A stretch of 64,000 nucleotides of DNA from Nannobrachium achirus (taxonomy: Eukaryota; Chordata; Actinopteri; Myctophiformes; Myctophidae): the NCBI GenBank assembly GCA_963921795.1, contig OY997650.1, positions 20,438,862 through 20,502,861 on the forward strand, in the 5' to 3' direction. The position numbers were made by a program, and so were the translations under genes. Every line of letters begins with the position of its first letter. Within the stretch, counting starts at the first letter, position 1. The notes under the pieces were generated by a model, which saw only the letters and a program-made list of their open reading frames with translations, had not been told where the DNA came from and searched no databases. This document shows, piece after piece, positions 556-63,985 of this stretch.

Positions 556-720
556 AAGCATGATGGTTCCCAAACTTTTTAGCCCGTGAACCAAGAGACA
601 TTACTTAGAGACATACTACCCTGTACCAAACAAGTAGTGAAAATAGCAGATCTACAAGCTCACAACGAGTTGCTTCGCACTGCGTTGTGACCCATACAAC
701 GTGTCCGCCGCATCGGTCCA
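556..720 (+). mobile_element. hAT-type MITE fragment (TGGTTCCCAAAC end)
   Basis: The text GATGGTTCCCAAACTTTTT followed by GCCCGTGAACC is the decayed terminus of a common fish non-autonomous hAT type. A GAAAATAGC hairpin copy is embedded at 639-690. The far end was not identified. Confidence 0.4.
639..690. repeat. GAAAATAGC hairpin, copy 1
   Basis: The left arm is intact (GAAAATAGCAGATCTACAAG then CTCACAACG). The right arm survives only as CGTTGTGA. Confidence 0.75.
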
Positions 721-1596
721 GACCCCAGTGTTAGGAAACAGCTGGTTCTGGTACACCATAGCCATTAGCCACTAGCTAGCCCAAACATTAGCCAGGCATA
801 ACATAGCAGCATAACATAGCATTCATCATTACAAGTCTATATAATATAAGCCACGACTCACCAGTGAGGACGCCAGGGCTAGCAGAGGGCGATGTTTAAT
901 GCCTTTATAGCCTAGGTTGTGTTGTCTTGGTGTTCTATTCCTTTATGCCCGTATTGTTATAATTCACCGAGTCCATGACGCATGTTACGCACGGAGAGAC
1001 AGACGCTCAGACAAGTTAAAAGGGAAGTCCTTTGAAAGCCATTTCCTCTCTAAACAGTGCCCAGAAGCACATTTCAAAACAAGAGTCTTTATTTATTTTT
1101 TTTGTCTATACAATCGATCATTCAACACATGTTTATTTTGAAATTGTACTGGAAATAGAAGTAGCCAACAATAGCTCCTACTTCACGCCACTGATGTCAG
1201 AGCCTCTACTTGCCGATCGGCAATATTTTTCCCCCAACCCCCCTTTAGGTGGGGGGTGCGGTGGGGGGTGCGGTGGGACGTGGGGGAGGGGGTGCGGCCG
1301 CACCTCCAGCACCCCTACTTCCCTCGGGTATGTTTACATTATGTTATTGTATTTGTTATGTTAATGAACTAAATTATATAATTTAACTATCGTTATCAGG
1401 ATACTCTTCAAACTGGCAGCAATATACAGTAAAATGTATAAGTAAGGTCAGAGTGGCTTATTGTCAGTATCAGGCAAGTAACGATGGCATCTATACAATT
1501 TACGATGCACTAGATCCCTGGGAGGTGGACTGCTTAGGTGGAGTGCATCGCCTACTGTACCATCCACTCATCTTAGTTACTCAAGTATTGGTACTC

Positions 1597-1680
1597 ATAC
1601 ACTGAGTTGGTGGGATTGAACCAAGAACCTTGTGGTAAAGGAGAGAGTTCTCTGCTCTCTACCAAACTACTCAGACACAA
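1597..1680 (-). mobile_element. tRNA-derived SINE head, fragment
   Basis: The minus strand reads GAGTAGTTTGGTAGAGAGC (A-box-like) and, about 25 bases on, GGTTCTTGGTTCAATCCC (B-box-like). There is no tRNA cloverleaf and no CCA or terminator, so it is a SINE head and not a tRNA gene. Confidence 0.45.
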
Positions 1681-1865
1681 ATATCTAATTATAAATCATG
1701 TTATTAGGGTTAACTAACCCTAACCCTTGCCATAATCAACCAGCATTAGTGTTATCTTGTCTATCTATGATGTGGCCCAGTACAGGTCCAGTACTGTCCC
1801 AGTACAGTCTCCTACAATACCTGTACAACTCTTTCCATCTCCCACTCGCTCTACTGTATGTTACA

Positions 1866-1890
1866 CCCCCCCCCCCCCCCCCCCCCCCCC
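1866..1890. repeat. poly-C run, 25 bases
   Basis: An uninterrupted C homopolymer that is likely length-variable and prone to sequencing error. Confidence 0.95.
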
Positions 1891-2469
1891 TGCTGTGACC
1901 TTCCTGGTGACAGCTGATGAATCGGGAGTCGGGGGGACACCAGGCGTCGACTCCGTCATGCCCCGTTAATATGCATGCAAATGTAGCACTTGACATTTCA
2001 CTACGACACAACGGTGCGAGGAGAGGAGAGGAAAGGAGAGGAGAGGATGATCGGAAGAGAGGATGAAAGAGTGTGTGTGGGAAGGACTGGCAGAGGTAAG
2101 GAAAAAAGAATGGAAGGAAGAGGAGATGAGAACGTGAGCGGATGGTTGGGAAATGGGGAAGCAGGGGCAAAGGAGGGGGAGAATAAAAAGAAAGGATGAA
2201 TGGAGTGAAAGACATAGTGAGCGAATAGAAGTGAGGATGCGTTCTTTCTTGCTGCTGTGCGTGATGAAGACATGACATTACCTACCTGGGGGTACGGGGT
2301 GTCTATTAACATGATGTTATACATACTACCGGTACCTGACAGGAAAAAAGGCTTGTTATAGAAAGGCTGCATGCTAGCAATAAAAAAGTAAGCCTGTTCA
2401 GACATACGTCTCTAAATACTTAATTTATGCATTGCCACAGGTTGCAAGCCGAAAACAACCAATGTACGA

Positions 2470-2516
2470 GTTCACAATGCATCGCGAAGCTGGCTTGGTA
2501 GATCTACTGTTTTTGA
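2470..2516. repeat. GAAAATAGC hairpin, decayed copy
   Basis: TTCACAATG, then GGTAGATCTACTGTTTTTG, keeps the order of the hairpin's right arm with several changes. Confidence 0.4.
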
Positions 2517-2731
2517 CACCCGACACGGGCACGCAACTAAATCTAAACCTAAATCTAAAGACCTAAGGATTTACACAAAAACACACAGCTAAATTGTAAA
2601 TGTAAATGTACATATATCTTACTGTACATATTATTTATTATTTAATTTAGTGGAATTCATTGCAATCACTTATTGTCATTATAATCTTGTTTTATATTGT
2701 GATTTCTGTTGTTGTAAGGTCTTGCAGTCTC

Positions 2732-2848
2732 CACACACACACACACACACACACACACACACACACACACACACACACACACACACACACACACACACAC
2801 ACACACACACACACACACACACACACACACACACACACACACACACAC
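2732..2848. repeat. (CA)n microsatellite
   Basis: An uninterrupted dinucleotide run of about 117 bases. Confidence 0.98.
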
Positions 2849-61501: not shown

Positions 61502-61560
61502 ATGTGTATAGTGTCAATGAATGTAAATGTGATTAACTCTCCAGTATAAGGAGAAAGGGT
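61502..61560 (+). pseudogene. L1 ORF2 N-terminal stub
   Basis: The first codons read MCIVSMNVNVINSPV and then a stop. The SxNVNxINSP pattern is the start of the L1 endonuclease. Nothing of the endonuclease core or reverse transcriptase follows before the poly-A tail. Confidence 0.6.
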
Positions 61561-61789
61561 GTAACGACGGACATGAGGGTGGAAATGTTCTAATGAAAAT
61601 GAAGATGGACTTGTGAAAAGGAAAAGAGAAAAAAAAAGGGAAAAAATAAGACAAAAAAGTAAAGCCTGTATATGAACAGTATGATGATGATTAATGTGAA
61701 GAGATGATGGATGCCATGATGTATGTGTTTGTGTGAAAAAATCAATAAAAATTGAGTGAAAAAAAAAAAAAAAAAAGTATCAATACCGC

Positions 61790-62540
61790 AATATTAGAAA
61801 TATGTGTTACTTATAACTGTTACAAGTAAAAGTCCTTAAGTCCAGAATTCAAAATGTACTTGGGTGAAAGTATGACAGAGTTGTTATAAAAATGTACTTA
61901 AAGTAGCAAAAGTTAAAGTACAAAATGTTTGAAAATAGCAGCTATTTTCGTCTATTTTCAAATAGCCAAGGTATAAAATAGGGCTAAAGTGGTTCATGTA
62001 TGTTTTATAATTAAAGTACACATACCTCAAAATTACTTCAGTAAATATACTTAGTTACTTTACACCACCACTTGTCATACACACAAGAATGTCTAAAAGC
62101 CCCACTAGCAGCCCCTAGAGGTCATGCTGCTCCTTACACACACTGGAGCCTGGCACTCACTAGTGGACTTGGAACAGATATTAAATGTTAACATGTTGGC
62201 CTGAGGGTGTTTAAAGGTCTTGGGGTCAATCAAAGGTTTAGGGTTCATCAGCAGGGGAACATGAATTCACCCTGCAGGTTTTATTGCAGTTGGCCCATTA
62301 GACATACTGTATCTTGAGGGCAAGTGGAAGTGTTGGCCTACGGGTGACGTTGGAGCAAAGAACATGGTGATTCCATGGGGTTCATCCTCAAGGCAGCATG
62401 AAGATGCTAGTCCATGGCAATCCAGATAGTAGGTTGTGATTATTATGTTGTCTGGGAGAAGTGATGCATGCCTGGATGGATGGATGGAGCACCGTCACTA
62501 GCCACGCAAGCATGCACAATTTACAGTATGTCCACATACT
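61790..62540. other. rest of AAAAGTA-type element and unassigned sequence
   Basis: 61790-62075 belongs to the split element. 62080-62540 has no recognised feature. Confidence 0.5.
61928..61962. repeat. GAAAATAGC hairpin, collapsed to the outer arms
   Basis: TTTGAAAATAGCAGCTATTTT joins the two outer arms with the inner arms missing. Confidence 0.7.
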
Positions 62541-62983
62541 GTACAGCAGGGGTCTTCAATTTGTTCAGGCCAAGGACCCCTTAGTCGAGAGAGAGATGAA
62601 GCAGGGACCCCCACAAGTTTCATCGTTTGACGGCACAATCATCAGTGTATTTTGGATTCATGTCAATTTGTGTTATCAGATAGGTAACCACTTGAACCGT
62701 CAATAGCCTCCTTAATAAACTTGACCTTTCACTCTGTAGATAGATAGATAGATACCTTTATTATCCCACAGGGGATATTCAGTTGCCCAGAGGCAGCACA
62801 GCAGTTTAAGGTTACAAGTTACAAAGAAGTAAGAAAAAGAAAAAGAGTACTGTAGTGTACAGTCCAAAGAGCAAGCACAAAAAAGAAGAATATAAACATG
62901 AAGTGTCGAAAAGCTATTGCAAAAAAGAAGAATATATACATAAAGTGACCACGAAACATTCAACGCTCATAAGTGACACGTCA

Positions 62984-63014
62984 CACACACACACACACAC
63001 ACACACACACACAC
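62984..63014. repeat. (CA)n microsatellite inside the LINE 3' end
   Basis: A pure run of about 31 bases. Confidence 0.95.
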
Positions 63015-63298
63015 AAAAAAAAGCTATACTCAAAGCACAACTTAACAAACGGTGCCAAACAAAAAAAGTGCACATAACAGTCGATGCTAGTCAATGCAAC
63101 ACAAGTATCACACTGCCATATCAACACAGCAATAGTACTCAGTTCAACCAACACAACCCAATAGTGCAGGGCCAGAAAATAAGTGACCAAAGTCAGTGCA
63201 AATAAATCAAGAACATATATATATTCTTTCCCCCTTTTTTTAAGCAATAAAGGGAGCCACAGCAAGACCCAACAGCAACCCTCTCAGGGAAAAGTATG

Positions 63299-63874
63299 TT
63301 AGAGGTCAGAGTCAGTACAACTTTTGCTCCAGTAGTGCAAGGTAACAGTTGTCCTAGGTAATCCTATTAGGCCTTGGCAAGCGACCATCATGAGTCTTGT
63401 TGTATTACTTGAGGGCGACCGGCACAAAGGTCTCTCGCACCTCCGTCCTGGGTAGCGGAAACGGTTGTTACCTCTCTTACTCCAGTAACCGAAGATCTCA
63501 GGATAGAGGGGATGGGAGGAGTTCTCCAAGATGGCGACCAGCTTCCTAGCTGTACGCACCCTGGCTATTTCCTCCACCCCCTGTAAGGAGGACCCAACGA
63601 CAGAGCCCGCCTTCACCAGTCTGTTGAGGTTGGCAGTGTCTCCTGCTCTATTGTTGCCCCCCCAGCAAGATATTCCAAAAAAGAGAACACTAGCCATAAC
63701 TGACTGGTAGAACATCTGAAGCATCCTGTTGCACACACCAAACAATCTCAGTCTTCTCAGGAGGAACAGCCTGCTCTTCCCCTTGCTGAGGATCGCCTCA
63801 GCGTTGTCGGACCAGTCCAAAGAGCTGTTCAGGTGCATTCCAAGGAATTTGTAGTTGTCCACAAACTCCACCAC
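63299..63874 (-). pseudogene. LINE reverse-transcriptase C-terminal part
   Basis: A 191-codon open frame. It has NYKFLGMHLNSSLDWSDN (the common thumb-side motif K-LG-x-L), then RLFLLRRLRLFGVCN, MFYQSVMASVLFFGISCWGG, LNRLVKAGSVVGSSL and SSHPLYPEI. This order is that of the end of Rex1/CR1-group reverse transcriptases. No YxDD catalytic motif is present because the copy is truncated. The 3' third diverges from the usual ending, suggesting a late frameshift. Confidence 0.8.
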
Positions 63875-63916
63875 TTAGTCCGCTCTTTTTCTCCTCTACA
63901 GTCTACACCAAATCTC

Positions 63917-63985
63917 TTTGCCAAAAATAGCCGATCTATAAGCTCACATTGTAGATGAGCTTGTAGATCTGCTATTTTTGGCAAA
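63917..63985. repeat. GAAAATAGC hairpin with TTTGCC/GGCAAA outer arms, second copy
   Basis: TTTGCCAAAAATAGCCGATC and GATCTGCTATTTTTGGCAAA. The loop and inner arms are shorter than at 30136-30215. Confidence 0.9.

What the first reader, a model, noticed from the sequence alone, without database searches (positions are those of the whole stretch)
639..63985. A recurrent self-complementary hairpin (GAAAATAGC/GATCTACAAGCTCACAA) in at least five transposon families
Seen directly: intact or decayed copies at 639, 2470, 7347, 8710, 16843, 18025, 18714, 22591, 30136, 31911, 33803, 34085, 40782, 42541, 48144, 50099, 52518, 58257, 61928 and 63917, about one per 3 kb. Intact copies are 65-85 bp and pair almost end to end. 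They sit inside the CAGGGGTGTC hAT MITE, the CAGTGGTTCTCAACCT hAT MITE, the AAAAGTA element, the CAGGGGTCTTCAAT element and the CAGGGACGTGCAGAG MITE, and also alone. Sharing one core across unrelated hosts implies that it moves or is copied by itself. It is too small for a protein, and it does not match a TIR element I know.
Basis: partly seen in the sequence, partly recalled or inferred. Interest (0 to 1): 0.9.

Follow-up and report, generated by a model that had tools for sequence, protein, structure and literature searches.

The report
Hairpin module shared by unrelated transposons
A self-complementary DNA hairpin of about 73 letters, present at perhaps hundreds of thousands of places in this animal genome, sits inside many small transposons of different kinds and seems to be copied along with them, a sign that small transposons can trade parts.

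Summary
The hairpin is real: 17 of the 20 listed places hold an arm of at least 10 bits; the reversed control has none. The exact 17-mer occurs 122,021 times in the 1.66-Gb genome, 0 in the control. The window plus 20 stretches give one locus per 2.2 kb, 2.1% of the DNA. The unit is 73 bp and lies in about ten host families, not all independent, including hAT-type hosts (8-bp duplications) and TTAA-flanked hosts; one common ancestor is unlikely. Independent movement is not shown. Over 12 families flanking direct repeats show no excess, but flanks beside the core pair with each other in a host-specific way (at least 4 bp in 7 of 12, 6 of 132 mismatched). Arms co-vary. The one 'alone' copy tested has a repeated flank. 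One pair of loci shares a left host but leaves the hairpin into different right hosts. Hairpin-less sites read are mostly varied deletions. Best reading: a palindromic module copied by its hosts' transposases and passed between hosts by fold-back template switching or recombination. A TA-inserting 77-bp element is the main rival.

The parts
639..690 (+). hairpin, left arm and loop intact, right arm decayed; host resembles a CAGTGGTTCCCAAACC hAT-type MITE (family F7), flank ...AAGTAGT
   Evidence: arm 25.4 bits; flank clusters with L005, L021, L028
2451..2514 (+). decayed hairpin
   Evidence: 7.7 and 4.9 bits
7346..7379 (+). decayed left arm
   Evidence: 14.4 bits
8710..8756 (+). hairpin with part of the left arm deleted, in a CAGGGACGTGCAGAG MITE (F6)
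   Evidence: 19.8 bits; aligned with the 18025 copy
16847..16908 (+). hairpin in host F8 (ACTAAAAC-rich element, hAT-type by recalled resemblance); host-specific stem extension
18026..18093 (+). hairpin in a CAGGGACGTGCAGAG MITE (F6)
18711..18744 (-). right arm only; flank GGTGTCACACTCC resembles F6/F8
   Evidence: 24.2 bits
22609..22638 (-). right arm in the AAAAGTA element (host B)
   Evidence: 24.3 bits
30136..30215 (+). intact hairpin with host-specific extension TTTGCC/GGCAAA, in a TTAACCACTTGAACC element (right end not found here) within a CAGGGGTCTTCAAT MITE (F2)
31911..31957 (+). decayed hairpin called 'alone'; its right flank is repeated at 37 other genome places
33665..34248 (+). hAT-type MITE CAGGGGTGTC...GACGCCCCTG holding two hairpins, with 8-bp target duplication CCACTGTC
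33807..33853 (+). shortened hairpin, left position of that MITE
   Evidence: 7.9 bits with the first profile; paired with the rebuilt one
34087..34159 (+). hairpin, right position of that MITE
40783..40842 (+). decayed hairpin
   Evidence: 10.6 bits
42535..42588 (+). decayed hairpin, next to a 56-bp inverted repeat at 42480-42535
   Evidence: 11.5 bits
48145..48174 (+). left arm in a CAGTGGTTCTCAACCT MITE (F4)
   Evidence: 22.1 bits; clusters with L002, L003, L016, L023
49827..50260 (+). second CAGGGGTGTC MITE copy, one hairpin left, 8-bp target duplication CCCATCAT
50100..50170 (+). hairpin in that MITE
52521..52598 (+). intact hairpin in the AAAAGTA element (host B)
57079..57509 (-). copy of the CAGGGGTGTC MITE with both hairpins missing, own 8-bp duplication ACTACAAG; left stump AAATAGCTATTTTT reads as a palindrome-centre deletion
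58261..58290 (+). left arm in host F8
   Evidence: 21.8 bits
61928..61965 (+). collapsed hairpin stump in host B
   Evidence: no profile hit
63917..63985 (+). intact hairpin with TTTGCC/GGCAAA extension (F2)

Best explanation
It is a 73-bp palindromic DNA module with no coding capacity. Several families of non-autonomous DNA transposons of at least two superfamily types acquired it, and their transposases now multiply it as internal cargo. Shown: abundance, one core in hosts of two target-duplication types, a fairly constant outer boundary, arms that co-vary between families, host-specific stem extension, no consistent flanking duplication, internal deletions, and one apparent recombinant between two hosts that meet at the hairpin. 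Inferred: new hosts gain it when a fold-back strand or a broken end primed at the hairpin switches template. That copies one arm onto the other, which gives perfect arms and extends the stem a few bases into the flank. The copy is joined by short homology rather than by the module's own transposase.
For: The 17-mer count is 122,021 against 0 in the control; density one per 2.2 kb. Hosts have 8-bp duplications (GTGTTAGT, CCACTGTC, CCCATCAT, TACTAGAG) or TTAA at both ends (L019:2814-2997, L022:8358-8571). Flank pairing extends the stem by at least 4 bp in 7 of 12 hosts, against 6 of 132 mismatched pairs and 0 of 5,000 permutations; direct repeats show no excess (p 0.34). Across 35 intact 73-bp copies, 58 of 980 cells are changed on both arms yet still paired, against 29.3 +/- 5.4 shuffled, maximum 48. 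L005 and L008 are 95.6% alike over 317 bp, left host and nearly the whole hairpin, and then run into different right hosts; L005 shares the right-arm variant GTAAGC with L003 and L007, copies of its TTAA-type right host. Of 136 loci, 87 have both flanks repeated within the sample, 33 one, 16 none. F3: 9,939 places with 70-100 bases between the anchors, 281 with 0-30.
Against: Copies of three hosts (F3, F5, F7) have TA directly outside GTGAAAA...TTTTCAC on both sides, as a TA-inserting element would; this explains their stem extension without template switching. Three F5 copies (L029, L031, L032) carry a single TA where the hairpin would be. The transfer step rests on one apparent recombinant from a locally duplicated region. 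The shuffle ignores relatedness within families. The 12 hosts were chosen by hand, their flank strings partly made by eye. Five of the 12 show no extension of 4 bp or more, and family F9 has lost the outer stem.
Confidence: 0.5

Rival explanations
1. The hairpin is an independent palindromic MITE of 77 bp (GTGAAAATAGC...GCTATTTTCAC) that inserts at TA and duplicates it, moved by a Tc1/mariner-type or other TA-specific transposase. It repeatedly jumped into other MITEs, which then amplified it.
For: TA on both sides in copies of F3, F5 and F7. Single-TA sites in F5 copies L029, L031 and L032; L029 and L032 have their own 8-bp host duplications. The exact single-TA join of F3 is 8 of the 100 shortened sites listed of 281, two of the 8 being near-identical duplicates.
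Against: F1, F2, F4, F6, F8, F9, F17 and F20 lack TA on both sides of that unit. In F5 itself 5 of 11 filled rows have TA on both sides, and 0 of the 4 from the arbitrary stretches; the other 7 rows, of which L033 and L034 look identical, came from a search that favoured TA on the right. TA is self-complementary, so stem extension alone would also give it. The F3 exact-join copies are not a separate subfamily. In a noisy tree with crude cuts the F5 hairpin-less copies are scattered among filled ones. The join searches used the predicted join as query, which favours it. No solo insertion was found, with one locus tested.
Confidence: 0.28
2. The hairpin is selected, for example as a transposition enhancer or as an RNA or cruciform structure, so hosts that gained it by chance amplified best.
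For: The whole 73-bp unit, not random pieces, recurs in most hosts, and arm pairing is kept between families.
Against: Deletions are tolerated (281 shortened F3 sites; 35 near-full-length F4 matches without a full hairpin). No Rfam family matches the window at gathering scores. Hosts are of at least two target-duplication types, so a shared enhancer is hard to picture.
Confidence: 0.12
3. All hosts descend from one ancestral element that already held the hairpin.
For: The TTAA families F2, F17 and F20 look related. Host B shows a flank close to the TTAA-type end at L020:7814 and shares about 20 bp beyond the hairpin with F1, so some hosts are not independent. Adjacent flanks of F3 and F7, and of F3 and F5, are partly alike.
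Against: hAT-type hosts with 8-bp duplications and TTAA-flanked hosts with other ends both carry it; immediate flanks differ between most hosts.
Confidence: 0.05

Closest known systems
Angel, short inverted-repeat element of zebrafish (Izsvak et al. 1999; not seen itself, only as described in passages of PMC12628747 and PMC3636048)
   Same: Fish; high copy number; long self-complementary stem; a fold-back replication model with re-entry helped by local homology; compensatory changes reported in two exonised copies.
   Different: This unit is 73 bp and is found mainly as cargo inside other MITEs of several types. Its sequence could not be compared with Angel's, which was not available.
Stowaway and other palindromic MITEs with TA targets (recalled)
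   Same: Short, palindromic, non-coding, and TA-flanked in copies of three hosts.
   Different: Most hosts show no TA pair; no transposase or autonomous partner is known; ends vary by host.
MITEs carrying captured repeats (Xenopus Xstir and miDNA4, described in passages of PMC12628747)
   Same: A repeat rides inside a MITE and is multiplied with it; short direct repeats are linked to deletions.
   Different: Those are tandem repeats inside one element; here one hairpin is shared by many unlike hosts.

Membership tests
Tc1/mariner-type MITE (TA target) | TA duplicated on both sides of fixed ends | tested here: not met
   seen in copies of F3, F5 (5 of 11 rows) and F7 only; not in F1, F2, F4, F6, F8, F9, F17 or F20; no direct-repeat excess over 12 hosts
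Tc1/mariner-type MITE (TA target) | terminal inverted repeats matching an autonomous element | not testable with these tools
   no repeat library; no autonomous partner was sought
hAT-type MITE | 8-bp target duplication around the unit itself | tested here: not met
   8-bp duplications surround the hosts, not the hairpin; F8 has a 7-bp CARGTGT repeat beside it, and no general direct-repeat excess is seen
piggyBac-type MITE (TTAA) | TTAA at both ends of the unit itself | tested here: not met
   TTAA bounds two complete hosts, not the hairpin
Angel | sequence identity with the Angel consensus | not testable with these tools
   no copy of the sequence; the 17-mer and the 15-mers of this hairpin occur in none of the papers held
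Angel | long self-complementary stem with compensatory change | tested here: met
structured RNA family | match to a curated Rfam model | tested here: not met
   0 matches in the window at gathering scores

The most novel reading that the evidence does not exclude
A transposase-free palindrome that spreads as a parasite of transposons: it passes between unrelated MITE families by fold-back replication primed at its own hairpin, rewriting a few bases of each new host's flank into its stem, and then lets the host's transposase multiply it to roughly three quarters of a million loci.
Probability: 0.3. Interest if true: 0.8.

Novelty: new variant of a known kind. Interest (0 to 1): 0.55.

Why it matters
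If right, small transposons of different superfamilies exchange an internal module, and a structure rather than an enzyme drives the exchange. That would make the old fold-back amplification model for fish palindromic elements testable, because host-specific stem extensions and recombinants give concrete predictions. It also matters in practice: a 73-bp core on about 2% of a genome can chain unrelated repeat families together in repeat libraries and can seed ectopic recombination.

Tried and rejected
Single common ancestor of hosts: made unlikely. Fixed target duplication: the direct repeats that I first picked by eye (TA, TAGT, TTCT, CACC, CARGTGT) are no more than chance over 12 hosts. Reading the hairpin-less sites as pre-insertion alleles: in F4, 35 of 44 rows are near-full-length matches; I read 20 of those 35, and they show varied breakpoints, 3 of 20 at the TTCT join. 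In F6 I read 13 of 52 rows; 4 of 13 are at the CACC join. In F8 I read 3 hairpin-less rows of 47: L039 and L040 have the exact join, L046 another breakpoint. The F3 exact joins (8 read) are not a subfamily. F5 stays suggestive only: of six matches spanning both flanks, L029, L031 and L032 have the single TA, and L030, L081 and L082 are deletions or hairpin remnants. The copy L022:5334, without a hairpin, is not an exact TA site either. The tree of F5 was too crude to rest on, since some cuts took host sequence along. Inverted duplication of whole host halves around the hairpin: rejected, since perfect pairing stops after at most 10 bp in the 12 hosts. Other collections: 0 hits in viral and prokaryote contigs, which say nothing about fish. 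My first TTAA pattern was too strict and was replaced. One search used 66 of 73 arm pairs after dropping duplicates and cut flanks; one search used the 35 of 66 that are 73 bp long, with families assigned by flank rules of my own. L003-L008 come from one locally repeated region, so they are not independent, and they count in the 136 loci.
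Full report
WHAT IS THERE. A profile of one arm finds 17 of the 20 listed places at 10 bits or more; 2470 and 33803 are weak and 61928 is a collapsed stump. In the window and L001-L028 there are 212 arms of at least 10 bits, and none in the same DNA reversed. The intact unit is 73 bp, GAAAATAGC(N)GATCTACAAGCTCACAAC...GTTGTGAGCTTGTAGATC(N)GCTATTTTC. The seven window copies that I folded have z-scores of -6.1 to -14.2. 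The window is part of a 1.66-Gb assembly of 564 contigs; the exact 17-mer occurs 61,453 times forward and 60,568 times reverse, against 0 for the reversed pattern. In the window plus 20 arbitrary 10-kb stretches there are 114 loci in 251,046 bp, 2.1% of the DNA; simple scaling gives about 750,000 loci, a rough figure.

HOSTS. Clustering 201 distinct flanks of up to 80 bp gave 21 clusters of three or more members. By reading them I sort them into about ten host backgrounds. F1 is a TTAA-type element TTAACCCATTTAGGCC, in places nested in the CAGGGGTGTC MITE. F2 is a TTAA-type element TTAACCACTTGAACC nested in the CAGGGGTCTTCAA MITE. F3 has ends CGTTGTCGGGTGGAAACC. F4 is CAGTGGTTCTCAACC, F5 TAGGGCTGTCAC, F6 CAGGGACGTGCAGAG, F7 CAGTGGTTCCCAAACC. 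F8 is an ACTAAAAC-rich element, F9 has GCCGGAAG flanks, and B is the AAAAGTA element. Target duplications of 8 bp, the mark of hAT-type insertion, flank four host copies: GTGTTAGT (F5, L010:1413-1837), CCACTGTC (window 33665-34248), CCCATCAT (window 49827-50260) and TACTAGAG around the F2 outer host in L019. TTAA at both ends, the mark of piggyBac-type insertion, bounds L019:2814-2997 and L022:8358-8571, each with a hairpin inside. Superfamilies are assigned from these marks by established knowledge, not from a transposase match; for F4, F6, F7, F8 and B no duplication was measured. Some hosts are not independent: F2, F17 and F20 look related, and host B shows a flank like the TTAA-type end at L020:7814 and shares about 20 bp beyond the hairpin with F1.

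JUNCTIONS. Outside F9, the shared sequence ends at or within a few bases of GAAAATAGC. Just outside it, the two flanks of one host tend to pair with each other but not with those of other hosts: at least 4 bp in 7 of 12 hosts, up to 10 bp in F8, against 6 of 132 mismatched pairs and 0 of 5,000 permutations. Direct repeats beside the unit show no excess, permutation p 0.34. So the core often sits on top of short host-specific stems, and no single target duplication is seen. The 12 flank strings were assembled by me from the clusters, partly by eye; F17 and F20 in that list are TTAA-type relatives of F2, so the 12 are not fully independent.

ARM CO-VARIATION. Family consensus hairpins differ in sequence yet mostly pair: F1 35, F3 34, F5 34, F8 31, F2/F20 31, F6 30 and F4 29 of 36 positions; F9 only 16 (all but F1 and F3 rest on 2 or 3 copies). 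Among 35 intact copies, 58 of 980 cells in the lower stem are changed on both sides and still paired, against 29.3 +/- 5.4 with arms dealt at random. This control ignores that copies of one family are related, so the fair statement is that several families differ by paired changes that were probably fixed before they amplified. In F1 most copies of the two hairpins carry the same asymmetry, mirrored (GATATAC outside, GATCTAC inside), so one probably arose from the other inside the host.

EMPTY OR SHORTENED SITES. Whole-genome patterns with exact anchors gave 12 shortened F4 sites; 1 shortened F5 site against 10 places with 70-100 bases between the anchors, whose sequence was not shown; and 281 shortened F3 sites against 9,939 places with 70-100 bases, of which the 13 shown hold the hairpin. 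Many shortened forms keep hairpin ends, and breakpoints vary, as expected of palindrome deletion. DNA searches with joined flanks gave the predicted join in F5 (L029, L031, L032; a single TA), F8 (L039, L040; a single CAGGTGT), F4 (3 of 20 read) and F6 (4 of 13 read). The query itself favoured such joins, and in F3 the exact-join copies do not form a subfamily. I therefore do not claim proven pre-insertion alleles. F5 is the best candidate, because L029 and L032 are hAT-type copies with their own 8-bp duplications. Against it, only 5 of 11 filled F5 rows have TA on both sides, and none of the 4 from the arbitrary stretches.

EXCHANGE. L005 and L008 are 95.6% identical over 317 bp that cover the same left host and the hairpin up to the end of the right arm. 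L008 then continues into the F8 right flank. L005 continues into a TTAA-type element whose other copies (L003, L007) carry the same right-arm variant GTAAGC as L005, so the switch lies at or inside the right arm. These loci come from one locally duplicated region of contig C1, so this is at most one event, and the variant could also be a chance mutation.

SOLO COPIES. Of 136 loci, 87 have both flanks repeated within the 275-kb sample, 33 one flank and 16 neither. One of the 16, window 31911, was tested genome-wide: its right flank is repeated at 37 other places, most matches beginning within a few bases of the hairpin boundary, and its left flank is not. No clear insertion into unique DNA was found, but only this one locus was tested.

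MECHANISM. Shown: a shared core in hosts of two target-duplication types; amplification with the host (F3); no fixed duplication; flank pairing; co-varying arms; deletion; one apparent recombinant. Inferred: transfer by fold-back synthesis or template switching at the hairpin. The model proposed for zebrafish Angel by Izsvak and colleagues (read only as summarised in passages of PMC12628747) has a nascent strand fold back, copy itself and re-enter the genome by local homology; as I read it, this predicts perfect arms, variable stem ends and no fixed duplication. Angel elements also show compensatory changes in two lncRNAs (passages of PMC3636048). The TA-inserting rival explains F3, F7 and part of F5 well, but not the other hosts.

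NOVELTY. Palindromic MITEs and nested MITEs are known. A single 73-bp palindrome shared as cargo by hAT-type and TTAA-type MITEs at this scale was not seen in the papers held: searched the text for Angel, nested or palindromic MITEs and the sequence itself, and only their listings were seen apart from passages of the two papers named. Most subscription papers are not held, and no repeat library was available, so the unit may already have a library name.

Noticed in passing
window 42480-42535: An inverted repeat GGGCTCTATTTTGATTGTC...GACAATCAAAATAGAGCCC (self-match 86%) lies directly left of the decayed hairpin at 42541.
   Followed up: no
window 24627-24923: Long inverted repeat: 72-nt arms 97% complementary, with a second 60-nt pair (93%) nested inside; looks like another fold-back element without this hairpin.
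   Followed up: no
L033 and L034 (contig C97), about 1.5 kb into the locus: Hairpin arm units repeated in a row within an F5 host (112 bp instead of 77).
   Followed up: no
G000 C1:744594-744658: Three copies of the 17-mer in the same orientation, starting 26 and 22 bp apart, suggesting a short tandem array of half hairpins.
   Followed up: no
G000 C5:5731757-5829730: Five identical shortened F3 sites within 100 kb, suggesting local segmental duplication.
   Followed up: no
L005:1455-1527, L018:5654-5726, L026:7843-7915: Family F9: a diverged hairpin whose outer stem is lost (consensus 16 of 36 positions paired) between CACTTCCG and GCCGGAAG-like flanks; the inner core is kept.
   Followed up: partly
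L014:1308 and L014:1416: Two left arms 108 bp apart in the same orientation with similar flanks, a tandem or nested F8-like copy.
   Followed up: no
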